From positions 1-20,627 of IMG/VR virus record IMGVR_UViG_3300025030_001289: a stretch of DNA of 20,627 nucleotides; one strand, 5' to 3'. Both the position numbers and the translations under genes were made by a program. Below, piece after piece: positions 1 through 18,900 of the stretch (within the stretch, counting starts at the first letter, position 1; every line of letters starts with the position of its first letter). Origin of the DNA: a virus. The notes beneath the pieces were generated by a model. That model saw nothing but the letters and a program-made list of their open reading frames with translations, was not told the DNA's origin and did not search any database.

Positions 1-77
1 TAACCCGAATTAACGCTTCTGGAGAGCAGACAGTAGTCACTCAAAGAAAGAAGAAGAATCAAGTTCAAACTTTATAA
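1..77 (+). CDS. 3' end of an upstream CDS, possibly the tail of a split N-intein
   Basis: The frame beginning at base 3 is open from the window edge and stops at TAA 75-77, giving 24 residues that start TRINASGEQTVVTQ and end in a basic tail, KKKNQVQTL. I do not recognise a gene from so little. Its position, 24 bases before a free-standing homing endonuclease gene that is itself followed by a C-intein, is where the N-intein half of a fractured gene normally ends. The text TRINASGEQ resembles the stretch that follows the first ten residues of many inteins (T-R-x-x-x-G-E/K). No cysteine 1 and no Walker A residues are visible, so the exon end would have to lie just before base 1. It could equally be an unrelated gene such as a gp47-like neighbour. 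Confidence 0.45.
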   Translation, partial: TRINASGEQTVVTQRKKKNQVQTL

Positions 78-101: not shown

Positions 102-1385
102 ATGCTACAATGTAAAAAATGTGAATTTAAAGGATCTAATCTATATGAACATATAGTTAATGACCACAAAATGATGTTTAATGATTACGTGGGCCTCTAC
201 GGAAAAGAGTGCACAATGACCCCACCAAAACCACCAAAAAAGAAACGTACTGATGGGTATGTAAGTGTGTTTAGTAAAAAATATTGGTTAGACAAAGGAT
301 TTACAGAAGAAGACGCAATATACCAAATTAAGATTCGTCGACCAAGTAATACAGAATATTGGATAAATAAAGGGTTCGACATGAAAGCTGCTATTATCAA
401 AGTTTATGAATTTGGTCAGTCTGGATTTAATAAAGATAAATTAATAGAAAAACATGGAATTGTAAAGGGAACTTTATTATTTAATGAACGAAAGGAAAAA
501 AAGAAACTTTCAGGAAGAACTGTTCAGTATTGGTTAAACCGTAACTTCAGTGAAGTTGAATCAATAAAAAAAGTTCATGATACTCAAGACACTACCTCAC
601 TGTCATATCATATAAAAAAATATGGAAAAAAGAAAGGAACTAAAAAAAGGGAGGAATTGACTAATAAATGGCAATCAACATTAAATAATAAATCAAAAAA
701 AGAAAAAGCTAGAATTAATAAATTAAAAATATCAAATGGAGTTAAATTTATAAAAAGTCAACACCCAGAAAATTGGGCAGAACTTTGTCTGGAAAAACAT
801 TTTGGTTACTGTAAAAACGGAAAGCATTCTCATTACACATTATTAAAAGAGATTATCAATAGTGCTCAATCAAAGGAGCAATTAATTATTTTTTTACAAA
901 AAAAAGATGTTGAAATTCGAGATTTAAAATTTATTCTTAAAAATGAATTAATTACTGAATTTTATAATATAGCTGATCAAACCGAACAACAATATATATT
1001 TAATAAAATTTGTCAACATAAAGGAATGAAACTAATGCCAAAAGTGGCATATGGCACACGAATAACATTTAATGGAATTTTATATAAATCAATACCAGAA
1101 TATAGTATAGCAAAATATTTAACTGATAATAATATAAAATTTGAATATGATTTACAATACCCATATCAAAAAAAGAAATGGCCAGCAGGATTTCGGTATG
1201 ATTTTTATATACCATGTATTAATTTGTATATTGAATACGCTGGATTGGCGGGTAGAATTGAATATGATAAAAAAATGATTAAAAAAAGAAATCATTGCAT
1301 TGCACATAATCTTAGTGTGTTTATATCGAATGATCATCCTGTGATAATTAAATTAATTGAAAATGAAATTAAAAAAAACAATTAG
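102..1385 (+). CDS. Free-standing homing endonuclease, PD-(D/E)xK/Vsr-like, with N-terminal zinc finger
   Basis: The 427-residue protein has three visible parts. Residues 1-35 form a C2H2-like finger (CKKC, then H and H) followed by a DYVGLYG-type tail, as in MucR/Ros-like fingers of phage homing endonucleases. Three imperfect repeats start at Y61, Y86 and Y143 (YWLDKGF, YWINKGF, YWLNRNF), probably DNA-recognition modules. The C-terminus, about 325-420, has a nuclease core: a YKSIPEYSIAKYL helix, then D367 in RYDFYIP and E378 in LYIEYAGL. The family pattern supports DNA cleavage at an intein-less allele. It lies directly upstream of a C-intein and ends 23 bases inside that ORF, which is the known fractured-gene layout. 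The start ATG has no clear Shine-Dalgarno site. The third catalytic residue is uncertain. Confidence 0.8.
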   Translation: MLQCKKCEFKGSNLYEHIVNDHKMMFNDYVGLYGKECTMTPPKPPKKKRTDGYVSVFSKKYWLDKGFTEEDAIYQIKIRRPSNTEYWINKGFDMKAAIIKVYEFGQSGFNKDKLIEKHGIVKGTLLFNERKEKKKLSGRTVQYWLNRNFSEVESIKKVHDTQDTTSLSYHIKKYGKKKGTKKREELTNKWQSTLNNKSKKEKARINKLKISNGVKFIKSQHPENWAELCLEKHFGYCKNGKHSHYTLLKEIINSAQSKEQLIIFLQKKDVEIRDLKFILKNELITEFYNIADQTEQQYIFNKICQHKGMKLMPKVAYGTRITFNGILYKSIPEYSIAKYLTDNNIKFEYDLQYPYQKKKWPAGFRYDFYIPCINLYIEYAGLAGRIEYDKKMIKKRNHCIAHNLSVFISNDHPVIIKLIENEIKKNN

Positions 1386-1740
1386 TATAGGAGACATATA
1401 TACTTTATTTAAAAAGTATGGTGATCTAAATTTAGATGTGCTTACACCTTACGGGTATAAACATATTGAAGCCTGTGAAATTACTGCAAAAAACTCTCCG
1501 GTAATTAAATTAACAACTGACAATAGCTTAGAATTATTATGTTCTCCTGACCATAAAATTAAAACTTTAAATGGTAGATTTGTAAGTGCAAACAGATTAT
1601 TACCTGGCCACAAAATTTTATCACAAGAATCTTCGACAACAATAAAAACAGTTCAATTAATGCCATATCGGCAAGATTTACTAGACATTCAAGTATCAGA
1701 CGTGCGTCAATATTACTCAAACGGTATAGTTTCGCATAAT
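1363..1740 (+). other. C-intein of an atypically split intein in the gp46-like gene
   Basis: The 126-residue region has the late intein blocks: SPDHKI (block B, with Ser in place of the usual Thr of TxxH), LLDIQVSDVRQYY (block F) and NGIVSHN followed by Ser (block G). It also holds nearly all of the N-terminal Hint core (ISIGDIYTLF, VLTPYGYKHIEAC), so only a short first segment with Cys1 is missing. This matches the atypical split of phage TerL-type inteins, which have tiny N-inteins. The insertion point is the GK/S junction of the Walker A P-loop. Confidence 0.88.
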
Positions 1741-3654
1741 TCAGCGATATTAGATTCTTTAGCATATTGTATTTTTGACAAGTCGTCACGTGGTACAAAG
1801 GGGTCACATATAATGAATAATAAAAAAGATTTTTTTGAATGTAAATTTAATTTTGAAATTAAAGGAGTAAATTACCATATCCACCGCACAGGAAAACGAA
1901 AAGACAACGGTAGTTCGGTAAAGGGTGATGTTGACTTTTATAGAATAGTCAACGGACAAACAGAATCACTAAATGGAGAAGAGCGTGATGAAACAAATAA
2001 AATAATTCGTTCGTATTTAGGAACATATGATGACTTTATTTTAACGGCTTTATCGCTTCAAAATAATAACACTGGATTTATCGACATGGTTCAAAGCCAA
2101 CGAAAAGATTTATTGTCGAAATTTTTGGACATTGGTATTTTCGAAGATTTATATGAAATTGCAGCACTTGAAATATCCGACACAGCTTCAGCTCTTCGCC
2201 GTCTTAAGAAAGAAGATTGGTCACAACTATTATCAGATACACAAACTCAAATAGGAGCAAGTGAAGGTGAATTACAAATACTAAATGAGCAAAAAGATAA
2301 TAGTAGCAAAGAACTTTTTAATGTAAACGAAAAACATACCACACTATTATCACAATACAAACCAATTGATTCAGGTGTTATTAACCTTACCAAACTAACA
2401 AATCAAAAACTCGAACTAAATAAATTACTGAAAGATCAGGCTACCAATTTAATCACTGCCAGTGAGCAGATTAAAAAATACACCGACAAATTAAACGGGC
2501 TTTTAGATTTATATCCAAAAGTTCCAGATAATATTCAACAGGGGATTGAAAATTTAATATTGTTAGAAACTAAATTCGAAAAAAATAAACAATTAATTTC
2601 GCGGTTGTTAATTGATTTAAAACATAAACAAGAAAAACTTAAAAAGTTAGAAGAGCATAAATACGACCCAGATTGCAAATTTTGCATGGATAATGTTTTT
2701 GTTAAAGATGCTATAGAAACAAAAAAAACTATCCTTGTAGATGAAACAAAACTAATTGACACAAAAGTAATTTCCGATAATCTTAAGAAAGAAATCGCCG
2801 AACATTTGTATTACCGCACTTTGCAGGAAGCCCTTGAGGCGAGTGACATTAAAATAAAAGAAGTGAAAGACACCCTTCAGAAAATATCAACTTCTCAAGA
2901 AATAACATCATTACAAATTAAATCAAATGAATCACAATTATTAATCATTGAACAAAAAATAAAGGATTATCATTTAAATGAAACGGCAATAAAGCACAAT
3001 ATAAAGTTAGATGAAAAAGTATTAGGAATTAAAAAAATACTTAGTAGTATTACCATTACGCACAATGAAACACTTGAAAAAATATTACATCTTAACGGGC
3101 AATACCAAGTACAACTCAAAACAAAAACTGATATTTTAGATAAAATAAAAGAACTGCAGGACCTTGAAACATACTATGAAGCATATGAACGATACCTTGC
3201 TGCAGTTAGTCGTGATGGTATTCCATATGATTTAATTTCGTCGACACTACCAAAAATTGAACATGAAGTAAATAACATTCTGTCACAAATGGTAGACTTT
3301 ACCATAACATTTAATACAGATGGTAAAAATATCAATGCCTATATTGTATATGATGATACAAACTTTTGGTTATTGGAATTGACATCTGGAATGGAGAAAT
3401 TTATATCATCGTTGGCTATACGAAACGCCCTTATATCAATATCAAACTTACCCAGACCAAACTTTTTGGCAATTGATGAAGGCCTAGGAGCACTTGACGC
3501 AGAACATTTAAGCCAAATGTTTTTAATGCTCGACTACCTTAAAGACCAGTACGAGTTCATAATTATGATCAGTCATCTTGACTCGACCAAGGATATGGTG
3601 GATAAATTAATGGAGATACAAAAAGAGGGCAGCTTTTCCAAAATAATTCATTAA
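1363..3654 (+). CDS. C-intein plus C-terminal half of a gp46/SbcC/Rad50-like recombination nuclease subunit
   Basis: This 763-residue ORF begins with a C-intein (residues 1-126) and continues from S127 as an SbcC/Rad50 ATPase lacking its first P-loop segment. S127 starts SAILDSLAYCIFDK, which fits the serine of the Walker A motif GxxGxGK-S and the helix after it. Visible landmarks are a long coiled coil (about 270-620), a CxxC zinc hook at C438/C441, the ABC signature LTSGME at 673-678, Walker B with D705-E706 in FLAIDEGLGALD, and a SHLD switch near the end. With a gp47-like Mre11 partner this family resects DNA ends for recombination-dependent replication. The N-half (Walker A to GK) is absent from the window, so activity would require trans-splicing. 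I prefer ATG 1363 to the in-frame TTG at 1357. It overlaps the upstream endonuclease by 23 bases, suggesting translational coupling. Confidence 0.9.
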   Translation: MKLKKTISIGDIYTLFKKYGDLNLDVLTPYGYKHIEACEITAKNSPVIKLTTDNSLELLCSPDHKIKTLNGRFVSANRLLPGHKILSQESSTTIKTVQLMPYRQDLLDIQVSDVRQYYSNGIVSHNSAILDSLAYCIFDKSSRGTKGSHIMNNKKDFFECKFNFEIKGVNYHIHRTGKRKDNGSSVKGDVDFYRIVNGQTESLNGEERDETNKIIRSYLGTYDDFILTALSLQNNNTGFIDMVQSQRKDLLSKFLDIGIFEDLYEIAALEISDTASALRRLKKEDWSQLLSDTQTQIGASEGELQILNEQKDNSSKELFNVNEKHTTLLSQYKPIDSGVINLTKLTNQKLELNKLLKDQATNLITASEQIKKYTDKLNGLLDLYPKVPDNIQQGIENLILLETKFEKNKQLISRLLIDLKHKQEKLKKLEEHKYDPDCKFCMDNVFVKDAIETKKTILVDETKLIDTKVISDNLKKEIAEHLYYRTLQEALEASDIKIKEVKDTLQKISTSQEITSLQIKSNESQLLIIEQKIKDYHLNETAIKHNIKLDEKVLGIKKILSSITITHNETLEKILHLNGQYQVQLKTKTDILDKIKELQDLETYYEAYERYLAAVSRDGIPYDLISSTLPKIEHEVNNILSQMVDFTITFNTDGKNINAYIVYDDTNFWLLELTSGMEKFISSLAIRNALISISNLPRPNFLAIDEGLGALDAEHLSQMFLMLDYLKDQYEFIIMISHLDSTKDMVDKLMEIQKEGSFSKIIH

Positions 3655-3670
3655 TAACTTTTTTACTTTC

Positions 3671-3685
3671 CTATAATTATACTAT
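3671..3685 (+). promoter_or_regulatory. Possible late promoter upstream of the large virion gene
   Basis: CTATAATTATACTAT lies in the 48-base gap before the ATG at 3703. Its TTATACTAT part (3677-3685) resembles the 12-mer TTATACTTATAT found before two later genes. The similarity is partial. Confidence 0.3.
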
Positions 3686-3700
3686 GAGAACGCCTCATAG
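3682..3700 (+). promoter_or_regulatory. Perfect 7-bp hairpin directly before the start codon
   Basis: CTATGAG (3682-3688), loop AACGC, CTCATAG (3694-3700) form a perfect stem ending two bases before the ATG at 3703. No T-run follows, so it is not a standard terminator. It occupies the ribosome-binding position and could regulate initiation or stabilise the late mRNA. Confidence 0.55.
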
Positions 3701-3702
3701 CT

Positions 3703-6700
3703 ATGATTAAACAAACCCGACCTTACCTAGGACTAAAAGATTATCCAGTTTACATCGAAGACAGTAGTGACCTGTCACCTGATTTATTTGTCATAACATC
3801 ATTACCAAAAACACTTACCACAGGAGTCAATGCTGTATTTTTAAAGGTAGATTCAGACAATTTCACTCCGGAAACTCCGCTGCTCGTCGAAGTATTAGAT
3901 TCCACAAATAACCCGATATATTACGAAGTGCCTGATTGGTTGTCGAAAGACATGGAACGCATGATTGCAATTCATATTCACGATGACACTCCTCCAGGTA
4001 ATGCCACAATTACATTAATTGGTCAAACAGATAAACTTTACCGTAACGAAGAAATTCCTTCGTTATTAGTTGGAAAACCAAATGTTCGATGGTCACATAC
4101 ATTTTTTGTAGATATTACAAAAAGAAATAATACCAACATATATTTTGAAGATGATGTTGAACCACAAATAACAATCGAAGAAAAAATTCGACCGTATATG
4201 TTGCGTTCATTTTCAACTACACAATTTGTAACGCAAAGTAATGCAATATCATATAAACTATCGGGCATAACACCGACTATTGAAATCACAGGGGCAACTA
4301 CATTTTTACCAGAACATTTAGGAGCTAGAATAAAGTTGACACCTGCAAATGCCATTCCGGCTTCGGGTAGTTCATTTGATTCAATGGACAAAGTTTATTA
4401 TGCAAACATAGAGTCAATTGAAACTTCAACGAAGGCAACATTGTCATATAGATATTATGTGACAAATACGTCAACGCTCATGACGTATGTGCCAAAAACA
4501 TTTACCGACGCTGCATGTGAAATACATTATGAAGCTCTTCCAACTTATACTTTAACACAGAATTCAAGGTCACTTGCACTAATAACCGTAAATGACTTAC
4601 TTCCAATATGTGGAGAAGTCGAACGAATAAAATCATTTTATAAAAGCAACGGATCGGCTGCAGGTTGGGAAGTGATTGATGACTCTGTTATAAAAGAATC
4701 TGAGTATAATGAAATATTAATTGATACAAGTTCAATTGATGTAAAAACTCGTCTAGGAACGATTGTGGATAGCAATACGATTTCTAATTATTGGACCGCA
4801 CAATTATACACACGATATAATGGTGTTAATGTTATTGACCCTCCTACTTATGAAGGCGATGAACCAATGGCATATGATCAGGGGACAATTTTATTCCGTT
4901 CATTTTATCCATATCATACATCGACCGTCACACACCCAACACAATTTTTAAAAATAACACCCGTCGGAACATTAGGAGAATTTCATGGAATGTTTGACGA
5001 GTGTGGAGAATATACACTTCAATTAAATTTATTGGGACGCACATCCACTTCAATTGGCTCCGGGGTACTACCACACATTGAATTTTATATGTCGGGTTCT
5101 GCATTTGACTATAAAGCAAACGAAAGTGGGTTAGGAAAAAAGATTGGCGAAATTAATGTCGGAGAATTATTACCCGGAACCCGTGGAAATAGTTTTCGAT
5201 ATATGAAACAAAAGTTTTCATTTATTGCCGACCGACAAAATACAGGAATGTTGCTTATTAAAGTTAATTCAGGTGATTGGTACTTTTCAGACATATCGAT
5301 TAAGCCAACTGCCGATTTAGGATATACTCCGTGTCAAACAAAAATGCTTATTCCAATTCCAACTAATCATATTAATGACCAATTAGATTTTAAATTTGAA
5401 TATTACAATCATGAAAATGCTCCGTCAAAAGTAATAAGCTATGTAAATAATATTTCTTTTGCAGGTGGCAATACATACATAGGCGGCTCTAATAATATGC
5501 TTACAGGTTCTTTACATATTGGTAATCAAATAGGAACTGGGCTGGAAATAATTGGACTTTCCGGTGGCGGACTCATACGAACATCAGGATATCGAGGATA
5601 TGTATCGGCAAGCGCCGGAACTGCCCCACCGGGATTTGCCATATGGTCGGGAAGTGCCATGGCAAATTATTCAGGGGAAGATTATAACGGTGTTGGAATT
5701 GAATTTCATGGTGGCGGGACAAGCGGTTCATTTAAGTTTCGTGGTAGTAAGACACCGGAATTTGAAATAGCCGCCCCAACATTTTATTTTGGAAACTCAA
5801 TACAATATATCAGTGGAAGTAACGGAATTTTATCCTTACAGACGCCGAATTTTTCTATAGACGAAAATAGTACCGTATGGATATCAGGTTCATTTAGTGG
5901 GAGTATTTCTCCCGGTTCATTACCATCTGGAATCCTGAGCGGAAGTGCCCAAATTGCAACAGATATTTCCGGTGCGTTTACAAGTGTAAGTTCAAGTTAT
6001 TCCACGCGAATTACATCTAATGAAGTTTCAATTATCACACTAAATTCAAAAACAGGCTCATACGCAACAACCGGTTCAAATACTTTTATTGGTAATGAAA
6101 TTATAAGTGGGTCATTAAATGTGTCCGGCTCTACTACTACTCCTGTGGTCATTGGAGCATCTGCTCCTGCCGGTACATTAACACTTAGGGCAACAAGTCA
6201 CTCAACAGATGGTAATATAATATTTGAAAGTGATCCGACAACAGAGAGACTTCGAATAAAATCAACCGGAGAATTATTAATAGGAATAACGTCATCACTA
6301 AGTGCTGCATATTCTATACAAACCGCACAAGGCGCGCAGGGTACAGGAATATTACTTCAATGTTATTCTACAACCCCTACCCATCAAGTAGTAATTGACG
6401 GACTGAAAAGTGCATCAGACACAATAGGAACTCGTATAGCAACAGCTGATAATGAATCAATTCTCGTCCTAACAGGATATGGGATAAATTCTTCTAACGG
6501 AACGGCTGCAGCAGGTAGTATTCATTTTGAACAGCACGGTGCCGCAGGAGCTACTTTTATTCCATCACGAATAACATTTAAGACCGGTGGCGCTGGCGGT
6601 CTTAAAACTGAAAAGATGCGTATTACTCCACAAGGAGTTATTAAGTTTGCAGGAACTGCAGAGCGTTCAGCTGAGGGCACTTCATATCTAGATTTGTTCA

Positions 6701-7899
6701 ACTCAGGCACTCCGCCGGCCGGCACTCTTGCCAATGGTATATCATTGTATTCAGCAGCAGGGATTTTAAAAGTTATGAACGCTGCGGGTCTTGCAGGAAT
6801 AGTAACCACTCAACCTTCAGCCATAAACAATACGCAATTATTCTTCGCGGACACCAACGGTCAAGCAATAGGCAACGCAGCACTAACTTTTAATAGTGGT
6901 TCCGGCCAATTATCATCAACTTCTTTTAATGGTATTTTTAATGGAGCATTAAGTGGTTCAGCACAAATAGCCTCTGAAATATCAGGAGCATTTACAACAG
7001 CATCAGGTTCTTTCAGCACTCGAACAACCAATCTAGAAAGTGCATCGGGTTCTTTCAGCACTCGAACAACCAATCTAGAAAGTGCATCGGGTAGTTTTTC
7101 AACAAGAGTCACTTCATTAGAAACTGCTTCTGGAAGCTACTCGACAAGATTGACAAACGATGAAGTTTCGATTACTTTATTAAATTCAAAAACTGGTTCA
7201 TATGCAACAACCGGTTCAAATACCTTTAACGGAAATCAAGTAATAACCGGCTCACTTAGTATAGGGACAACCGGTACCGGTAAACAAGTCGAAATTAATT
7301 CAGTAGACGGAAATTGCTTGCGATTGACATATAATGACCCAAACGGTAATGCAACTAACTATGTTGATTATACCGTGTCTTCTACGGGTAACGCAACAAT
7401 TTCCGCATCTGGAGCCGAAATAAATTTTACAAATGATATTATTTATACGGCTTCAAGCTCCGGTGTACCATATGGATGCTGTTATGGAACTAACCTAGGA
7501 TGGACACAAGGTACCCCTGCTGTTGGTACATGGTATGAAATATCTGATGCTAAGATGTCTGACGGTCCTCTTAATTTGGTAAGTCATGACGGAAACGGAA
7601 AATTAACCGTTTCAAAAGCAGGTACATATTTAATAACCTATACCGTAGCATGTGGTGCGAATGTCATAGGTTCCTATTTATCCACTGCAATAAGCTTGTC
7701 AGGTACAGAGCAGGAAGCCGGCTATGTAAGTGTAGAAGTTCCTGCGGCAAATTATACCTGTGCCTCGGCGGGCCAGGGAATATTTACAGTTCCTGTAGGT
7801 CGTACTATTGAGGTGTCAATCCGATTTACAGGTGCAGTAACACCGACAGGTCTAGGAGTTGACGATTTAACAATAACCTGCACTATGATCGGTGGATAA
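3703..7899 (+). CDS. Large virion surface/fibre-like structural protein
   Basis: The 1398-residue protein has modular phage adhesin architecture. Residues 1-180 look like beta-sandwich attachment domains. About 370-540 resembles a carbohydrate-binding jelly roll (FDECGEYTLQLNLLG, then FRYMKQKFSFIADRQNTGMLL). A glycine/serine-rich beta region follows. Two related modules, GSAQIATDISGAF at about 745 and GSAQIASEISGAF at about 1085, each lead into a TRxTxxE coiled-coil and then KTGSYATTGSNTF. The last 150 residues (WTQGTPAVGTWYEI to the end) read like a C1q/TNF-type trimeric head (KAGTYLITYTVACG, YTCASAGQGIFTVPVG). No catalytic motif was seen. It sits between the recombination gene and the nucleotidyltransferase gene behind a hairpin and a possible late promoter. 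A tail fibre, whisker or capsid decoration role is inferred; the exact location on the virion is unknown. Confidence 0.72.
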   Translation: MIKQTRPYLGLKDYPVYIEDSSDLSPDLFVITSLPKTLTTGVNAVFLKVDSDNFTPETPLLVEVLDSTNNPIYYEVPDWLSKDMERMIAIHIHDDTPPGNATITLIGQTDKLYRNEEIPSLLVGKPNVRWSHTFFVDITKRNNTNIYFEDDVEPQITIEEKIRPYMLRSFSTTQFVTQSNAISYKLSGITPTIEITGATTFLPEHLGARIKLTPANAIPASGSSFDSMDKVYYANIESIETSTKATLSYRYYVTNTSTLMTYVPKTFTDAACEIHYEALPTYTLTQNSRSLALITVNDLLPICGEVERIKSFYKSNGSAAGWEVIDDSVIKESEYNEILIDTSSIDVKTRLGTIVDSNTISNYWTAQLYTRYNGVNVIDPPTYEGDEPMAYDQGTILFRSFYPYHTSTVTHPTQFLKITPVGTLGEFHGMFDECGEYTLQLNLLGRTSTSIGSGVLPHIEFYMSGSAFDYKANESGLGKKIGEINVGELLPGTRGNSFRYMKQKFSFIADRQNTGMLLIKVNSGDWYFSDISIKPTADLGYTPCQTKMLIPIPTNHINDQLDFKFEYYNHENAPSKVISYVNNISFAGGNTYIGGSNNMLTGSLHIGNQIGTGLEIIGLSGGGLIRTSGYRGYVSASAGTAPPGFAIWSGSAMANYSGEDYNGVGIEFHGGGTSGSFKFRGSKTPEFEIAAPTFYFGNSIQYISGSNGILSLQTPNFSIDENSTVWISGSFSGSISPGSLPSGILSGSAQIATDISGAFTSVSSSYSTRITSNEVSIITLNSKTGSYATTGSNTFIGNEIISGSLNVSGSTTTPVVIGASAPAGTLTLRATSHSTDGNIIFESDPTTERLRIKSTGELLIGITSSLSAAYSIQTAQGAQGTGILLQCYSTTPTHQVVIDGLKSASDTIGTRIATADNESILVLTGYGINSSNGTAAAGSIHFEQHGAAGATFIPSRITFKTGGAGGLKTEKMRITPQGVIKFAGTAERSAEGTSYLDLFNSGTPPAGTLANGISLYSAAGILKVMNAAGLAGIVTTQPSAINNTQLFFADTNGQAIGNAALTFNSGSGQLSSTSFNGIFNGALSGSAQIASEISGAFTTASGSFSTRTTNLESASGSFSTRTTNLESASGSFSTRVTSLETASGSYSTRLTNDEVSITLLNSKTGSYATTGSNTFNGNQVITGSLSIGTTGTGKQVEINSVDGNCLRLTYNDPNGNATNYVDYTVSSTGNATISASGAEINFTNDIIYTASSSGVPYGCCYGTNLGWTQGTPAVGTWYEISDAKMSDGPLNLVSHDGNGKLTVSKAGTYLITYTVACGANVIGSYLSTAISLSGTEQEAGYVSVEVPAANYTCASAGQGIFTVPVGRTIEVSIRFTGAVTPTGLGVDDLTITCTMIGG
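7009..7134 (+). repeat. Tandem 42-bp repeat coding a 14-residue coiled-coil unit
   Basis: Bases 7009-7050 and 7051-7092 are identical, each coding SFSTRTTNLESASG. A diverged third copy follows at 7093-7134 (SFSTRVTSLETASG), then a partial fourth (SYSTRLTNDEV). The 14-residue (two-heptad) period suits a trimeric coiled-coil stalk, and the perfect identity of the first two copies suggests recent duplication. Confidence 0.9.
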
Positions 7900-7909
7900 T
7901 CTAAAATCA

Positions 7910-7921
7910 TTATACTTATAT
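7910..7921 (+). promoter_or_regulatory. Putative late promoter motif TTATACTTATAT (copy 1)
   Basis: This 12-mer lies seven bases before the ATG at 7929 and is repeated exactly at 11996-12007. It is flanked by an inverted repeat, AATCTA (7898-7903) and TAGATT (7923-7928). It resembles T4-type late promoters in composition and position, but its role is inferred. Confidence 0.4.
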
Positions 7922-7928
7922 GTAGATT

Positions 7929-10013
7929 ATGACACAAATCAAAACCATAATAGCAATCTTTCCGGGACGTTTCCAACCGTTTCATAAAGACCACTTTACC
8001 AAATACAAATGGGCAGTACAACAGTTCGGTGCAAAAAATACATTTATAGGAACATCAAATGTAGTAACTCCTCCAAATTCACCATTGTCTTTTAAAGAAA
8101 AAAAAGCAATAATAAATCACTATGGTATTAAAAATGTCGTTCAAATAAAAGATCCATATAAAGCCGTTGAAATTGTATCAAAATTCGACCCCAAAACAAC
8201 CGCCGCTGTTTTTATATTAGGGGCAAAAGACGCTGCACGACTCGGCGGACCATTTTTTAGAAAGTGGGCAGGCAAAGCAGATGTTGGTTATCGTGATGGT
8301 GCCTATATTTTACTTGCACCACAATTAGCCTCCGACGAATTATCCGGCACAATGGTAAGAAAAGCACTTAGTTCTAAATTATCACCAGAAAAGAAAAAAC
8401 AAGAATTTAAAAAAATATTCGGTTGGTATGACCAATCAATTTTTAATTTACTTGTTAAAAAATTCGAAATCACAGAATCAACTATAAAGGAATCAACAGG
8501 AGCAGACGGACTAACCGGACAAACTGTTGATGCAAATTGGCTGGCACCGGGTAAGGAATTACATATTCGTAGAGGTAAGTGGATGGACGGATGGAAGCAA
8601 GTTGAATTCCCCACTGCGGATAATCCATTTGACAAAGATTCAACCGAAATAAGAATACGTACAGACACTATTACTAACACTCCTGATATGCTTGATAAAC
8701 TATATGCAGAACTACAAAAGGCAGTGCCACTCGGAGCACTATCAGAAGCCATTACAATTCCTATTGAAATTGGCGACCTTATTTTGGGCGGCAAATTTAA
8801 AAATAAGAAAATCATTGTAAAAACAATTGGTAAAAACGAGAAAGGTGACCTTACAATAAACGGCAGCCCAATATTGCGAGTACGCATAACAAAGAAAGAA
8901 GTTGAAGAAATGGTCGATGAAATAGTTAATGGCCCAAGTGAAATTAAGGAAGGATTAGTTGACCACGCTGAATCTGAAGTGAAACGTGCAGGACTTTTAG
9001 ATAAAGATGCTGATTACGGAGGTATGATTGGTAAAGCTGTATTGGAATTAATGGACACTTTTTCTAAACAAGGTCATTCCGGATTTTCGGCTCAATGGGT
9101 ACGAGAATTATTTAATAAATTATCAAACTATGAAACACTCACACCACTTACAAACGAAAGTGATGAATGGAATGACGTATCTGAAATGTTAGATAAACCA
9201 TTTTGGCAAAATAAAAGAAATCCTGCTGTATTTTCTATAGACGGCGGTAAAACAATGTATCACGTAGATGGTAAAACAATTAAAAATGGTATTGTAGAAG
9301 GCATACGATTATTCCAATCAAAAAAGAAATTATTTGAGGGAAAAGATTATGTTGTATGTGAAATTTGTAAAAAGAAACTTAAAAGGATACACTCATTCCA
9401 TCTCAACACCCATAATTTGTCAATATCTGAATACTTAAATAAATTTCCCTGCGCATTACTTCTATGTGAAAATACACGTAAATTGTACTCTGAAAACAAC
9501 TCAATGAACGACAAGCAATCAATTGAAAAGATTAAAGCTACAAAAGTTGATATAAAAAATTCAAAGTCACCTCTTAATTTAATTTCTGAAGGGGGCGGTT
9601 TCGGCCACGTTAGTCATCCATTTGAAGAGTGGGATTTAACATTCAATGATTTAAAAACTTTAATTGAAGGTGGATTATCCGGAGAACTTTCAAAGCATAC
9701 GACCGTGCTTGAAAAATGCATTGAAGGCGATTCAATAGTTACTTTAGAAAGTGCAGGAGAAACGAAAATTTCTGACGTCGTTGATAAAAATATTGACGAT
9801 AATATATTGGCGTTTAACGAGGAAACACAAAAAAATGAATTTTTACCCATTCAAAATAAATTTAATAATGGAATTCATGATGAATGGCTCAAAATTGAAC
9901 TTGAAGACGGCAGAACAATTTGTGCTACCCCCAATCACAAATTTTATATCGAAGGAATTGGATATATACGAGCAGATCAATTATCCGTTAATGATGATTT
10001 AAAAATAATTTAA
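7929..10013 (+). CDS. N-half of split cytidylyltransferase/ligase-like protein with N-intein
   Basis: Residues 1-170 form a nucleotidyltransferase (cytidylyltransferase/NMN adenylyltransferase-like) domain: FPGRFQPFHKDH with H19 and H22 (HxDH in place of HxGH), and SGTMVR at 139-144 as the ISSTxxR-like motif. A middle region of unknown function follows. A zinc finger with C477, C480, H491 and H495 (VCEICKK, HLNTHNLSISEYLNKF) is next, then GHVSHPFEEWDLTFNDLK, and the protein reaches K596. That lysine is the first residue of KxDG, the covalent nucleotidyltransferase (DNA/RNA ligase) motif I. An N-intein (597-694) follows and the ORF stops. Trans-splicing with the product of 10764-11978 would give about 965 extein residues. 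A role in nucleic-acid end repair or NAD/nucleotide chemistry is inferred; the substrate is unknown. No Shine-Dalgarno site is evident. Confidence 0.85.
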   Translation: MTQIKTIIAIFPGRFQPFHKDHFTKYKWAVQQFGAKNTFIGTSNVVTPPNSPLSFKEKKAIINHYGIKNVVQIKDPYKAVEIVSKFDPKTTAAVFILGAKDAARLGGPFFRKWAGKADVGYRDGAYILLAPQLASDELSGTMVRKALSSKLSPEKKKQEFKKIFGWYDQSIFNLLVKKFEITESTIKESTGADGLTGQTVDANWLAPGKELHIRRGKWMDGWKQVEFPTADNPFDKDSTEIRIRTDTITNTPDMLDKLYAELQKAVPLGALSEAITIPIEIGDLILGGKFKNKKIIVKTIGKNEKGDLTINGSPILRVRITKKEVEEMVDEIVNGPSEIKEGLVDHAESEVKRAGLLDKDADYGGMIGKAVLELMDTFSKQGHSGFSAQWVRELFNKLSNYETLTPLTNESDEWNDVSEMLDKPFWQNKRNPAVFSIDGGKTMYHVDGKTIKNGIVEGIRLFQSKKKLFEGKDYVVCEICKKKLKRIHSFHLNTHNLSISEYLNKFPCALLLCENTRKLYSENNSMNDKQSIEKIKATKVDIKNSKSPLNLISEGGGFGHVSHPFEEWDLTFNDLKTLIEGGLSGELSKHTTVLEKCIEGDSIVTLESAGETKISDVVDKNIDDNILAFNEETQKNEFLPIQNKFNNGIHDEWLKIELEDGRTICATPNHKFYIEGIGYIRADQLSVNDDLKII
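9717..10010 (+). other. N-intein (98 residues) of the split ligase-like gene
   Basis: It begins at Cys (TGC 9717-9719) with CIEGDSIVTL (block A) and includes ATPNHKFYIEG (block B, TxxH), then ends at a stop after ADQLSVNDDLKII. Length and break point match canonically split inteins (about 100 + 35 residues). The preceding extein residue is the predicted catalytic lysine K596. Confidence 0.93.
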
Positions 10014-10018
10014 TAAAT

Positions 10019-10783
10019 ATGAAAGGTAAAAGAATATTTTATTGTGAGCATTGCAAACGATCAATTAAAATCAAATCTAAATATGATATTTCAGTGCATA
10101 AGAAATTTTGTAATGCTTATAAATCATATAGAGATAAAATTTTAACTAAGAAATTTTTGGTAAAAGAATATATTAAAAATGGTAGATCTGCAAAAGAAAT
10201 TTCAACTAAACATGGTATTCCAGTTGGAAGAATTATCAAAATGATTAGTAATTTTAAATTAAAAACACGAACGTTGAAAGAAAGTATATTAATGCCCAGA
10301 TGTAAAAAACGCACTGAGAATACAAATTTAAAAAGATATGGTGCAATTAATCCATTATCAAAAAATACAATTCCATATAATAAGCGCAATGAAACGGTTA
10401 AGAATAAGTATGGAGTGGACAATGTATTTCAGGTACCTGCGATTATTAAAAGAATACAAAAGACTGTTAGTAATTGGCGAATTCCAGGAGTACACAAACT
10501 AAATTTTAATCCAAAGGCGATTCCGATAATAGAGGCATACGGTAAAGAACATGGATGTAATTTTCGACATGCACAAAATCATTCTAAGGGAGAGTTTTCA
10601 ATATTAGGATATTTTGCAGACGGATATGATGAGAAAAATAATGTTTGGATTGAGGTAGACGAGAAACATCATTTTTATAAAAATGGAAAATTGAAACGTA
10701 AAGATGTTCGTCGCCAAAAAGAAATACAAAAATTTTTAAAATGTAAATTTATACGAATTAAATATGAAGATAAAAAGCATTAA
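10019..10783 (+). CDS. Free-standing homing endonuclease, EDxHD/PD-(D/E)xK-type, between split-intein halves
   Basis: The 254-residue protein begins five bases after the N-half stop codon. Residues 9-31 hold a putative zinc knuckle (C9, C12, H27, C31). Residues 44-85 look like a helix-turn-helix of the kind common in phage homing enzymes (YIKNGRSAKEISTKHGIPV). Two LKRYGAINP / NKYGVDNVFQ repeats follow at about 105-140. The C-terminal nuclease core shows D201 in FADGYDE, E212 and D214 in IEVDEKHHF, then KDVRRQKEIQKFLKCKFIRI. It is expected to cut the uninterrupted ligase-like allele and spread the intein-endonuclease unit. It is a different protein from the endonuclease at 102-1385 in its recognition modules, though both end in a restriction-like fold. 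Codon use is more A/T-biased than in the exteins. Confidence 0.87.
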   Translation: MKGKRIFYCEHCKRSIKIKSKYDISVHKKFCNAYKSYRDKILTKKFLVKEYIKNGRSAKEISTKHGIPVGRIIKMISNFKLKTRTLKESILMPRCKKRTENTNLKRYGAINPLSKNTIPYNKRNETVKNKYGVDNVFQVPAIIKRIQKTVSNWRIPGVHKLNFNPKAIPIIEAYGKEHGCNFRHAQNHSKGEFSILGYFADGYDEKNNVWIEVDEKHHFYKNGKLKRKDVRRQKEIQKFLKCKFIRIKYEDKKH

Positions 10784-10868
10784 AAAATCCAACAAGATCT
10801 TGACAAGATATGATATACAGGTCAAGGGCAGAAAATGTTATTATGCAAACGGTATTTTAATTCACAAT
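10764..10868 (+). other. C-intein (35 residues) of the split ligase-like gene
   Basis: TRYDIQVKGRKCYYANGILI is block F running into block G, and HN is followed by Thr at the +1 position (ACC 10869-10871). The length is typical of naturally split C-inteins and pairs with the N-intein at 9717-10010. Confidence 0.93.
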
Positions 10869-11978
10869 ACCGACGGCCAACAGCTTTCAATTTCATGGCA
10901 TGACAATAAATTAGTAGGTGCAAGAAATAAAAGTGAATTATCAGGATATGGAAAAAATGCACTTTCAGTCTCTGAAATTATTTCAAAGTTTAAAGGCCGC
11001 GGAGAAATAACAAAGGCAATGAAAGACATGGAAAGTGCAATAAAATCATTATCAAAAGATTCACGAGAAAAAATATTTAAGAACGGTAAGATATTTTTAT
11101 CAATGGAAATTATATGGCCGGCAACTACCAATGTAATTAATTATGGCAAAGCCCTGTTGGTTATTCATGGAACACAAATTGAATATGATGAAACCGGTAC
11201 GGCAGTACAATATATTAAAGGTCAGGCAAGTGAATTGGTTTCTGCAATTAAAAAAGTCAATGCAAATCTTCAAAAACACTTTGAAATTATAGAACAGCCG
11301 GTAATTGACTTACCAAAAATTTCAGATTTTTCAAAAAAGAAATCTTATTTTCTTGGCAAATTAAATAAATTAAAAGGTGAATTTGGATTAAAAGATACCG
11401 ACCAAGTTACAATTTATCATCAGCGTTGGTGGGAGAATTTTATTGGTAAAAATGCAAATAAATTCAAGTATGGTGTTCCAAGTAACATATCAACCGAACT
11501 TGTAAATCGTTGGGCATTTGGTAATAAAAGTTATTCAGTTGCATTGATGAAATCACAAATAAAAAATGCAGAATTTTTAACATGGGCACTTGATTTTGAT
11601 AAGAATAAACACACCGAGCAATTAAAGAAAAATATGTGGCCGTTTGAAAGTTTATTTCTGGAACTTGGTGCGGAAATATTAAGTAATTTAAAAACCTTCC
11701 TAACAGCATCCCCCGACAAAGCAGTACAAGATATACAAAAATCACTGGCGAGCACAATTTCAACAATTAAAGCAAGTGATAATGTAAGAAATATTACGTT
11801 ATTAACCAAACAATTAGAACGAATAAATGCAATTGGAGGACCAGATAAAATAATACCTTCAGAAGGACTTGCATTTTTATATTATCCTCCAGGAGCAACC
11901 GAGCCTAAGATGCTTAAGCTCACCGGAAAATTCGCTCCCCTTAATGCTTTGTTGGGAATCTTAAAGTACGCACGATAA
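10764..11978 (+). CDS. C-intein plus C-half of the cytidylyltransferase/ligase-like protein
   Basis: Residues 1-35 are a C-intein ending ILIHN; the extein starts at T36. After splicing, K596 of the N-half joins TDGQQLSISW, giving EKTDGQ, a KxDG adenylation motif. Downstream ARNKSEL fits the conserved arginine region after motif I. FLSMEIIWP suits motif III, EGLAFLYYPP motif IV and LKLTGKFAP motif V of the covalent nucleotidyltransferase fold. The extein part is 369 residues. ATG 10764 lies 20 bases inside the end of the endonuclease gene, so the two are probably translationally coupled. Motif matching is by eye; whether the domain is an active DNA/RNA ligase or another nucleotidyltransferase is open. 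Confidence 0.83.
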   Translation: MKIKSIKKSNKILTRYDIQVKGRKCYYANGILIHNTDGQQLSISWHDNKLVGARNKSELSGYGKNALSVSEIISKFKGRGEITKAMKDMESAIKSLSKDSREKIFKNGKIFLSMEIIWPATTNVINYGKALLVIHGTQIEYDETGTAVQYIKGQASELVSAIKKVNANLQKHFEIIEQPVIDLPKISDFSKKKSYFLGKLNKLKGEFGLKDTDQVTIYHQRWWENFIGKNANKFKYGVPSNISTELVNRWAFGNKSYSVALMKSQIKNAEFLTWALDFDKNKHTEQLKKNMWPFESLFLELGAEILSNLKTFLTASPDKAVQDIQKSLASTISTIKASDNVRNITLLTKQLERINAIGGPDKIIPSEGLAFLYYPPGATEPKMLKLTGKFAPLNALLGILKYAR

Positions 11979-15957: not shown

Positions 15958-18900
15958 ATGGCAGATACATCATTCTTTGCAAGGCTTGCTCGCCTTTTTT
16001 CGACCAACGTCATTGTCCGACGTATTGGTAAAAATCGTTTAAAAGTAGTTGACACTTCCCGTCTTCAATCCACCGGAAATGTCGATAATACAAGGTATGT
16101 CGACAGATATTCCCGCATGCATGGTTCTAATTCCAATGCAACTGCAATCAATCAAAACTACAATTATCAAAGCTCGCGCATACAATTATTCGGTGATTTT
16201 GAATGTCTTGCCGGTGAAACAAAAATTCCACTTCCAGATGGATCTCACCCTACAATAGCAGAACTTGCATTGAAATATCCAGGGAACTCGTCTAAATTCT
16301 ATGTGTTTTCATATGATCATGAAAACGATTGTATTAAATTAGGAGAAGCCCATTCAGTAAGAAAAACCAAAACTGAAATGACATATAAAGTTACATTTGA
16401 TAATGGCGAATATTTAATTGCAACAGACAATCATCCGTTTTTAATGCGAACCGGTAAATATACTCCGGTTCAGGAGTTAAAGGTCGGCGATTCTTTAATG
16501 CCTTTCTACAGAAAGAATTTTTATTCCGAAAAATACAATTTTGTTTATAATTTTTCAAAAAAATGGCAGTCTGAACATAAAATTGTTGCGGAACAATTTC
16601 ATAGAGAAATGCTTCCTGGGGAAGTAGTACATCATAAAGATTTTCAAAAATATAATAATTTACCTGATAATTTGCAAATTATGTCTGATCATGATCATCG
16701 GCACTATCATAGTGTTATCATGAATAAAAATCATAAATGGTCACCGGAAAATAGAGAACGGCAAATAGCAGCACAAACAGCCGGTAACAAAAGATTTAGG
16801 GAAGAAAATCCTGTTCGATATGCCCAAATTTGTAAAGAACAAAGTCGGATGATGAAAGAAAAAAACCCAAATTTTACCCATCCAATTACAGAAGAATCAC
16901 GAGTTAAAAAATCAAACTCTTTAAAGAAATTTTATAAAACTCATCCAAATTATAATGCAAACGAAAATAATGGTAATTGGAAGAATGGATTAACTTATCA
17001 AATAATCGAAAATACTGCTATTGAATTGTATAAAACTACCGGAAAAATTACAAAAGCACAAATAAAAAATAAATTAAAAGGAATAGGGCAAGGAATTGAA
17101 CCTCGAATAAAACAAGCCGGATTTAATAGTTATGTTGATTTTAAAAATCATATTAAAAATACATTAAATCATAAAATCACTTCTATAGAGCCATATGAAG
17201 TTTTAGATGTATATGACATGACAGTTGACAAATATAATAATTTTGCAACCGAAAATGTTTTTGTTCATAATAGTATGGATACCGATGCCCTTATCAGTTC
17301 TGTCCTCGACATTTGCTCAGATGAATCAACACTGAAGAACTCCTATGATGAAGTATTGGCAATTAAATCTTCCAATGAAAATGTAAGAAAAATCCTATAC
17401 AATTTATTTTATGATATTCTAAATATTGAATTTAACTTATGGCCATGGATACGAAATATGTGTGTAGACGAGAATACTATAATTCCATTGTTAGATGGAA
17501 GATCTTTAACTATAAAGGACCTAAGCAATGAAATGAAATTAAACCCTAGCAAAACATATTGGGTGTATTCAAACCACGAACAAACGCAACGAACCGTACC
17601 AGGTAAAATAAAATGGTGTGGTATAACACAAAAAAATGCCAAGATAGTACGTGTTAGATTAGATGATAATACATATATCGATACCACTCCTGACCATAAG
17701 TTTTTACTGAGAAATGGAAGCAAAAAGGAAGCGCAAGAATTAACATCTGGGGATAGTTTGATGCCGTTATATACTAAATTAACCACTAAAACTAATCGCA
17801 ACAAGGAAGGTTATGAAAAAGTTTATAACCCAGCATCTAACAGGTATAATGTAACGCATCGATTGGTTGCGTATGAATGTGGAATAAGTAATGTCAAAGA
17901 AGAACGAAAAACCGGGCAAATTTATCATACACATCATGTAAATTTTGATAAAAAGAATAATTTACCTGAGAACTTAAGAAGGATGACTGCAAGTGATCAT
18001 GCAATATTGCATTCTACTGGCTCGAAAATTTTTGCAAGACCTGATATTGTTAAAAAACGGATGGTAGGTATAGATAAATGGCTACGATCAGAAAAACATA
18101 GTAAAATGGTATCCGGAAGACAGAAAGGCATTTATCCAAAACATTTTCAGGAATATAATAACAGTATGTTGCATAAAGAGCATGATAAAATTAAATCTGA
18201 TCTAATAAAGGAATATTGGAAGAATGGTAGATTAAAGCCTCGACCAAAATTAATTTTAGATGAACGCTGTTTAAGTATTATCACCAAAACCGTTAAAAAT
18301 CATTCGGCTTATATAGGTTTAGAAACCCTAGCTAATATTTTAAAACTCGATGATAATTTTTCAAAATATTTCCAGGAAGCAAATAAATCACATAAATATA
18401 ATGTATTAAAATCAATTAATCTCGCAACATTAAAGGTCATGATAAAGAGGGATACTGGTATGTATTATTGTGACTTTTTAATGTCAATACTCCCCACACT
18501 TGTGACGGACCCTAAATTTAAACGTGCCAAATCAATAACTGATCTTTCAAAGAAAATAATAAATCATAAAGTAACATCAATCGAATTTCTAGACACTACA
18601 TCTGATGTTTATTGTATGGAAGTTGTTGGCCCAAATAATGAAGAAGATCGACATAACTTTGCAGTGTGTAGTAAAAATTCAGACGGTTCGTATAGCAGGA
18701 ATGGCGTGTTTGTTTCGAATTGCAAGTACGGCGATCATTATCTTTGGCTTCACATTCAAGAAGGAGTTGGTATTGTAAATGTACTACCAATATCGGCATA
18801 TGAAATGGTCAGAGAAGAAGGAATGGACCCAAAAAACCCATATGAAGTTAAATTTTATCGTCAAGGTATTATGGGACAAAAGGAGTCACTTAAAAATTAT

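What the first reader, a model, noticed from the sequence alone, without database searches (positions are those of the whole stretch)
1363..10783. In both split genes the C-half starts inside the nuclease gene
ATG 1363 lies 23 bases before the end of the first nuclease gene, and ATG 10764 lies 20 bases before the end of the second. The nucleases differ in domain order and the inteins differ in split point, so this shared overlap looks selected. It would tie translation of the essential C-half to that of the nuclease, making loss of the nuclease costly to the phage.
Basis: partly seen in the sequence, partly recalled or inferred. Interest (0 to 1): 0.72.

Follow-up and report, generated by a model that had tools for sequence, protein, structure and literature searches.

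The report
Nuclease gene carries next gene's start
In two phage genes that are cut in half by a selfish DNA-cutting (homing) gene, the second half starts inside the end of that selfish gene; a survey of about 60 independent cases shows this is the rule, because the invader appears to bring in the start signal for the half-gene behind it, although translation itself was not tested.

Summary
In detail: both C-halves start inside the nuclease gene (23-nt and 20-nt overlaps). It is not a coincidence. Across 61 independent clusters of split-intein genes with a nuclease between the halves, the C-half start overlaps the nuclease end in 54 (49 by the strictest start choice). Controls are far lower: 26-30% for ordinary neighbouring genes in the same contigs, 16% for the N-half/nuclease junction, 40% for genes behind free-standing nucleases. 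Uninterrupted copies of the same inteins show why: DNA matching the intact intein begins about 3-17 nt after the C-half ATG, so the start codon belongs to the nuclease cassette. Ten loci that have lost the nuclease still keep a nuclease tail overlapping the C-half ATG. Best reading: the nuclease's last codons double as the C-half's ribosome-landing site and start codon. Kind: Dassa-type fractured genes; I found no report of the overlap rule in the papers I could search.

The parts
1..77 (+). Start of the record, open in frame 3 to a stop at 75-77; no N-intein motif recognised. N-half of gene 1 is off the record
   Evidence: relatives' N-inteins end ...LGFLPDELK
102..1385 (+). Nuclease 1, 427 aa, N-terminal zinc-finger-like motif, helical middle, C-terminal PD-(D/E)XK-like domain (about residues 317-426)
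   Evidence: relatives L197 (phmmer 1.8e-63), L242, L203, all inside fractured genes; model pLDDT 77 with C-terminal strands and helices of a PD-(D/E)XK-like domain; weak Foldseek hits to BstEII, PvuRts1I, AbaSI
1363..1385 (+). Overlap 1: ATG of C-half 1 to stop of nuclease 1; encodes the last turn of the nuclease's last predicted helix
   Evidence: no Shine-Dalgarno core upstream
1363..3654 (+). C-half of gene 1: atypically split C-intein (1363-1740) plus C-extein of an SbcCD/MRE11-RAD50-like protein, junction in Walker A
   Evidence: phrog_77 SbcC-like 9.5e-38; 38.7% identity to Mel-JY01 over the C-extein
7929..10013 (+). N-half of gene 2: cytidylyltransferase-like and Tad3-like domains, then N-extein ending EK and N-intein (9717-10010)
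   Evidence: PF01467 2.2e-6, PF25185 1.4e-32, PF14890 4.5e-7; homologue L010
10019..10783 (+). Nuclease 2, 254 aa, DUF7487 region and C-terminal PD-(D/E)XK-like tail
   Evidence: PF24308 4e-8, RAP 0.0047; homing-endonuclease phrog 2e-7
10764..10783 (+). Overlap 2: ATG of C-half 2 to stop of nuclease 2
   Evidence: no Shine-Dalgarno core upstream
10764..11978 (+). C-half of gene 2: canonical 35-aa C-intein (10764-10868) and C-extein starting TDG (nucleotidyltransferase motif I)
   Evidence: PF14890 0.004, profile positions 122-155; C-extein 30-37% identical to LR756508, Mel-JY01 and LR756500

Best explanation
Each locus is a Dassa-type fractured gene: N-half, homing nuclease, C-half, to be rejoined by protein trans-splicing. 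The nuclease sits flush against the C-intein, and the DNA coding for its last codons also contains the start codon, and in hosts that use it the Shine-Dalgarno site, of the C-half. An uninterrupted intein has no start codon at that place, so the invading nuclease cassette supplies it, while the nuclease reading frame runs on to the first stop, giving an overlap of about 4-50 nt. The C-half therefore depends physically on the nuclease gene's 3' end, and that end is usually kept even when the rest of the nuclease is deleted. Shown: the overlap rule, its excess over controls, the junction position against intact inteins in two intein families, and the retained tails. Inferred: that ribosomes load on these sites largely independently, with some help from ribosomes finishing the nuclease.
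For: Overlap in 54/61 (first ATG) or 49/61 (last plausible ATG) clusters versus 30% of 1130 background pairs (OR 17.9, p 3e-20) and 26% of 459 pairs in contigs holding such loci (OR 21.8, p 2e-21). N-half/nuclease junctions overlap in only 16% of 51 clusters, median gap 47 nt. Nuclease-like ORFs elsewhere overlap the next gene in 22/55, and several of those next genes look like unflagged C-halves. DNA homology to intact inteins begins about +3 to +17 nt from the C-half ATG where flanks align well, e.g. NrdA ATGCTA|AAGATTGAATAT and gp46 ...LPDE|ITIGEL. Nuclease tails overlap the C-half ATG in nuclease-less loci L067 (1e-12), L187, L217, L035, L042, L130, L210, L065, L229 (1.5e-3) and Aeromonas phage Aes516. 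In Shigella phage JK32 and Vibrio phage K469 the nuclease is fused to the N-half and the C-half still overlaps it by 20 and 14 nt. Shine-Dalgarno and openness data.
Against: The two window loci have no Shine-Dalgarno core, though most genes in this window also lack one, so independent initiation there is assumed. Seven of 61 clusters have gaps of 1-34 nt, and L231 and L241 have larger gaps. In L194 the nuclease 3' end is gone and the C-half has a 32-nt gap, so the tail is not indispensable. Overlaps are slightly shorter than synonymous shuffles predict (17.7 vs 23.1 nt, p 0.001), a hint of selection for a nearby stop, as coupling would want. Junctions could be compared directly only for two intein families, and fission of a contiguous intein by frameshift gives a similar picture. 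The survey motifs favour certain C-intein endings.
Confidence: 0.66

Rival explanations
1. Obligatory translational coupling and addiction: ribosomes must translate the nuclease to its stop and re-initiate at the overlapping C-half ATG, so any mutation that stops nuclease translation starves the phage of an essential protein.
For: Overlap is the rule; stops lie within a few codons of the start, slightly nearer than synonymous shuffles predict; tails overlapping the start persist after nuclease loss, and in Aes516 the tail is fused in frame to the N-half so ribosomes still reach it; short 3' ends of an upstream gene suffice for re-initiation in E. coli (PMC10666635).
Against: C-half starts are open and carry Shine-Dalgarno sites above average. 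Few 1-4 nt overlaps, and long overlaps couple poorly according to the review PMC12548453. Nuclease bodies deleted in at least ten loci, some tails without an in-frame ATG. Damaged nucleases in L127, L148, L162, L192. Nuclease starts are more structured than average, so dependence on them would starve the C-half.
Confidence: 0.22
2. Origin by fission: a contiguous intein with an in-frame nuclease domain was broken by a frameshift at the nuclease/C-intein boundary; the overlap is the leftover of that frameshift and no separate cassette insertion took place.
For: JK32 and K469 still have N-half and nuclease fused with only the C-half out of frame; both possible out-of-frame phases occur equally, 22 and 22.
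Against: In three-part loci the nuclease has its own start, typically some 25-76 nt after the N-half stop, and diverse unrelated nucleases occupy the slot; related inteins exist without any nuclease domain. Not exclusive with the functional part of the best explanation.
Confidence: 0.2
3. Ordinary phage gene packing: overlaps are common in compact genomes and the two cases are coincidence.
For: Background overlap is 26-30% in the same contigs; T4 homing genes overlap upstream genes by 11-24 bp (PMC2988022).
Against: 80-89% versus 26-30%, and the opposite at the N-half/nuclease junction.
Confidence: 0.04
4. Programmed frameshifting fuses the nuclease to the C-half through A-rich slippery runs in the overlap.
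For: A-runs lie in both window overlaps.
Against: Overlap frames are split 22/22 across clusters, so no common frameshift type would serve; C-halves have a start codon of their own at the C-intein's first residues.
Confidence: 0.02

Closest known systems
Fractured genes with split inteins and an intervening homing endonuclease gene (Dassa et al. 2009, NAR; recalled, paper not held)
   Same: N-half + IntN, free-standing nuclease, IntC + C-half, same strand, insertion in conserved active-site motifs
   Different: Here two in one 20.6-kb record, one atypically split at Walker A of an SbcCD-like gene; the start-codon overlap was examined across about 60 clusters, which I could not find reported
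T4 free-standing homing endonucleases segC, segF, mobA, mobC, mobE (PMC2988022)
   Same: Overlaps of 1-24 bp between a homing endonuclease gene and a neighbour, with translational coupling or re-initiation proposed
   Different: There the nuclease start overlaps the upstream gene and the proposal is to limit nuclease synthesis; here the nuclease end overlaps the downstream half-gene
Atypically split inteins with a very short N-intein (AceL-TerL, VidaL type; recalled)
   Same: Gene 1 C-intein is about 126 aa and holds most of the fold; its phage hits are mostly TerL inteins, some of them split
   Different: Host gene and insertion site differ (Walker A of an SbcCD-like protein); N-intein of the window copy not seen
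mobE insertion in nrdA of phage Aeh1 and mobA in gene 60 of T4 (PMC2988022)
   Same: A homing nuclease gene splits an important gene into two
   Different: No intein there; the halves associate without splicing
Termination-reinitiation coupled gene pairs (PMC10666635, PMC6728339)
   Same: Stop and start codons overlap
   Different: Typical coupled overlaps are 1, 4 or 8 nt; here the median is 11 nt and 24 of 54 are 17 nt or longer

Membership tests
Fractured gene with split intein (Dassa type) | C-half ORF begins with a C-intein followed by a +1 S/T/C and the C-extein | tested here: met
   Both C-halves
Fractured gene with split intein (Dassa type) | N-half ORF ends in an N-intein, upstream, same strand (gene 2) | tested here: met
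   PF14890 at residues 604-691 of 694
Fractured gene with split intein (Dassa type) | N-half ORF ends in an N-intein, upstream, same strand (gene 1) | not testable with these tools
   The record starts 101 nt before the nuclease; relatives L197, L242, L203 meet it
Fractured gene with split intein (Dassa type) | Homing endonuclease ORF between the halves | tested here: met
   Nuclease 2 matches homing-endonuclease phrogs; nuclease 1 by relatives in the same setting and predicted fold
Fractured gene with split intein (Dassa type) | Halves trans-splice to a functional protein | not testable with these tools
   Needs expression
EDxHD / Vsr-like PD-(D/E)XK nuclease | PD-(D/E)XK-like fold with conserved acidic residues | tested here: inconclusive
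   Nuclease 1: invariant E333, D367, E378 in five sequences, fold pattern in the model, but Foldseek best E 0.017 to BstEII
Translationally coupled gene pair | Stop and start overlap or lie within a few nt | tested here: met
Translationally coupled gene pair | Downstream translation depends on upstream translation | not testable with these tools
   Indirect evidence leans against strict dependence

The most novel reading that the evidence does not exclude
Homing nucleases in fractured genes have convergently evolved to hold the host gene hostage at its start signal: the nuclease 3' end is a mandatory leader for the C-half, so the element can be lost only by precise reversal to an intact intein or by leaving its tail behind as a permanent, translated leader. 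That would be an addiction device made of an initiation site instead of a toxin.
Probability: 0.27. Interest if true: 0.78.

Novelty: new member of a known kind. Interest (0 to 1): 0.6.

Why it matters
How a homing gene can sit in the middle of an essential gene and not be purged is an open question for these elements. The survey turns a two-case hunch into a general rule with a concrete anatomical cause: the invader brings the second half's start codon inside its own coding sequence. The retained tails in nuclease-less loci are natural deletion experiments that make the idea testable. They also give a sequence marker (a nuclease tail in front of a C-intein) for recognising where a homing nuclease used to be.

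Tried and rejected
Searches with nuclease 1 and C-half 1 as single proteins found nothing in viral contigs. Nuclease 2 found only free-standing relatives. Megablast of the whole window against phages: no match. A first reading of bases 3-77 as an atypical N-intein tail was dropped when relatives' N-inteins (...LGFLPDELK) did not resemble it. My first impression that nuclease-less loci never overlap was wrong: at least nine hold nuclease tails that do. Occlusion of the C-half start by RNA structure, which would have supported coupling, was tested and the opposite was found. In-frame nuclease/C-half fusions with a separate N-half were sought; L044 is at most one unverified candidate. The similar lengths of the two window overlaps (20 and 23 nt) and their shared frame were considered and judged unremarkable. 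Foldseek on nuclease 1 gave only weak hits.

Full report
What is there. The window is a whole 20,627-base virus record. Two genes in it are interrupted by homing-type nuclease genes. Gene 1 is an SbcCD (MRE11-RAD50-like) protein, uninterrupted in Microcystis phage Mel-JY01; its intein sits in the Walker A motif. Gene 2 combines a cytidylyltransferase-like domain, a Tad3-like domain and a nucleotidyltransferase whose motif I (EK|TDG) holds the intein. The N-half of gene 1 is not in the record; that it is split is inferred from its C-half and from relatives L197, L242 and L203, whose N-halves lie 40-73 nt upstream of a related nuclease. The two nucleases are not detectably homologous, yet both seem to put the catalytic PD-(D/E)XK-like part at the C-terminus, so 'different domain order' is not supported.

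Is it more than chance? I scanned viral contigs for two C-intein end motifs and kept ORFs in which a C-intein lies at the very start, giving 127 loci in 85 clusters at 50% identity. With a nuclease between the halves, the C-half start lies inside the preceding ORF in 54 of 61 clusters using the first ATG, or 49 of 61 using the last plausible ATG; the median overlap is 11 nt. Controls: 30% of 1130 co-directional neighbour pairs in the same loci (OR 17.9, p 3e-20); 26% of 459 pairs when limited to contigs that hold such a locus (OR 21.8, p 2e-21); 16% of 51 N-half/nuclease junctions, median gap 47 nt; and 22 of 55 genes behind nuclease-like ORFs elsewhere, several of which look like C-halves missed by the motif. 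The nucleases are GIY-YIG, NUMOD3, HNH, MTES_1575, TnsA-like, DUF559, DUF7487 and Vsr types, so the rule is not one lineage's history.

Why the overlap exists. Some inteins have close uninterrupted relatives. For the NrdA intein (intact L077, L119; fractured L138, L123 and others) DNA similarity to the intact intein begins mostly 6 nt after the C-half ATG (3-9 nt over all such loci): ATGCTA|AAGATTGAATAT. For the gp46/SbcC-type intein (intact L235) it begins about 4-17 nt after the ATG; the intact protein reads ...GVLPDE|ITIGEL..., the fractured halves end ...LPDELK* and start M(n)-ITIGEL. An intact intein has no start codon there. So the start codon, and everything upstream of it, belongs to the inserted nuclease cassette, and the nuclease frame simply runs on to the first available stop. 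Synonymous shuffling of the C-half's first codons predicts overlaps only a little longer than observed (23.1 versus 17.7 nt, p 0.001). In nuclease 1 the overlap encodes the last turn of the last predicted helix.

Natural deletions. Distances between N-half and C-half are sharply two-sided: up to about 200 nt without a nuclease, or mostly over 500 nt and filled by one ORF. In the nuclease-less class the short gap often codes, in another frame, for the end of a nuclease that still overlaps the C-half ATG: L067 (phmmer 1e-12, overlap 8), L187 (6e-12, 14), L217 (5e-11, 25), L035 (7e-8, 37), L042 (1e-7, 11), L130 (5e-5, 35), L210 (1.6e-4, 25), L065 (5e-4, 43) and L229 (1.5e-3, 35). In Aeromonas phage Aes516 a nuclease tail is fused in frame to the N-intein and overlaps the C-half by 17 nt. 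L192 has an in-frame deletion, and L127, L148 and L162 have interrupted nuclease frames, all with the overlap kept. L194 is a counter-example: only the nuclease's front remains and the C-half has a 32-nt gap. So the nuclease body can be lost, but its 3' end usually stays.

Coupling or landing site? Overlapped C-half starts have a Shine-Dalgarno core in 49% of clusters, C-halves without nuclease in 48%, nucleases in 34%, all genes in 33%, random positions in 8%. They are less structured than other gene starts (unpaired 0.55 versus 0.48, p 7e-4), whereas nuclease starts are more structured (0.42). Only 9 of 54 overlaps are 1-4 nt, against 154 of 340 in background overlaps. In the literature, re-initiation favours overlaps of 1, 4 and 8 nt (PMC10666635), and one reporter series quoted in the review PMC12548453 lost coupling by 25-nt overlap. 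These facts favour an initiation site embedded in the nuclease's coding end over strict dependence on nuclease translation. They do not exclude partial coupling, and in the window itself neither start has a Shine-Dalgarno core, as is true of most genes there.

Relation to known things. These loci are fractured genes in the sense of Dassa et al. 2009 (recalled; the paper is not in the library). T4 homing genes overlap their upstream neighbours by 11-24 bp and coupling has been proposed to limit nuclease synthesis (PMC2988022); here the overlap is on the other side. I found no paper stating the overlap rule for split-intein genes, but the key 2009 paper could not be read, so priority is open.

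Verdict. Nuclease and N-half labels for the clusters were assigned by reading the ORFs and by profile matches, so individual cases may be wrong; the contrast is large enough to survive some errors.

Noticed in passing
window 15958-20625: One long ORF (portal-like host gene, open at the record end) appears to contain three contiguous inteins, beginning near CLAGETKI, CVDENTII and CISPDTLI, so this phage carries at least five inteins in 20 kb.
   Followed up: no
window 7929-10013 (residues 343-452): The N-half of gene 2 matches Pfam Tad3, a type I Thoeris inhibitor (1.4e-32), between a cytidylyltransferase-like domain and the ligase-like part; a defence-inhibitor-like domain inside a split-intein gene.
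   Followed up: no
L230 and L008: The MRE11-like part of the SbcCD gene seems interrupted by a nuclease ORF just before GSL(I/L)Q(Q/N)N.GE without any intein signature, resembling the mobE/nrdA type of split or an intron.
   Followed up: no
L209, L220: A terminase large-subunit gene seems to be broken twice: a middle ORF looks like one split intein's C-part at its start and another's N-part at its end.
   Followed up: no
L202, L216, L208, L231, L143: An extra small gene lies between nuclease and C-half; in L231 and L216 the C-half start overlaps that extra gene by 11 and 8 nt.
   Followed up: partly
survey loci, nuclease starts: Homing nuclease start regions are more structured than other gene starts (unpaired 0.42 versus 0.48), in line with translational damping of such genes.
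   Followed up: partly
L249 (Shigella phage JK32), L254 (Vibrio phage K469): TerL N-halves fused in frame to a TnsA-like/Phage_endo_I or GIY-YIG nuclease, with the C-half overlapping by 20 or 14 nt; annotated only as terminase or hypothetical protein.
   Followed up: partly
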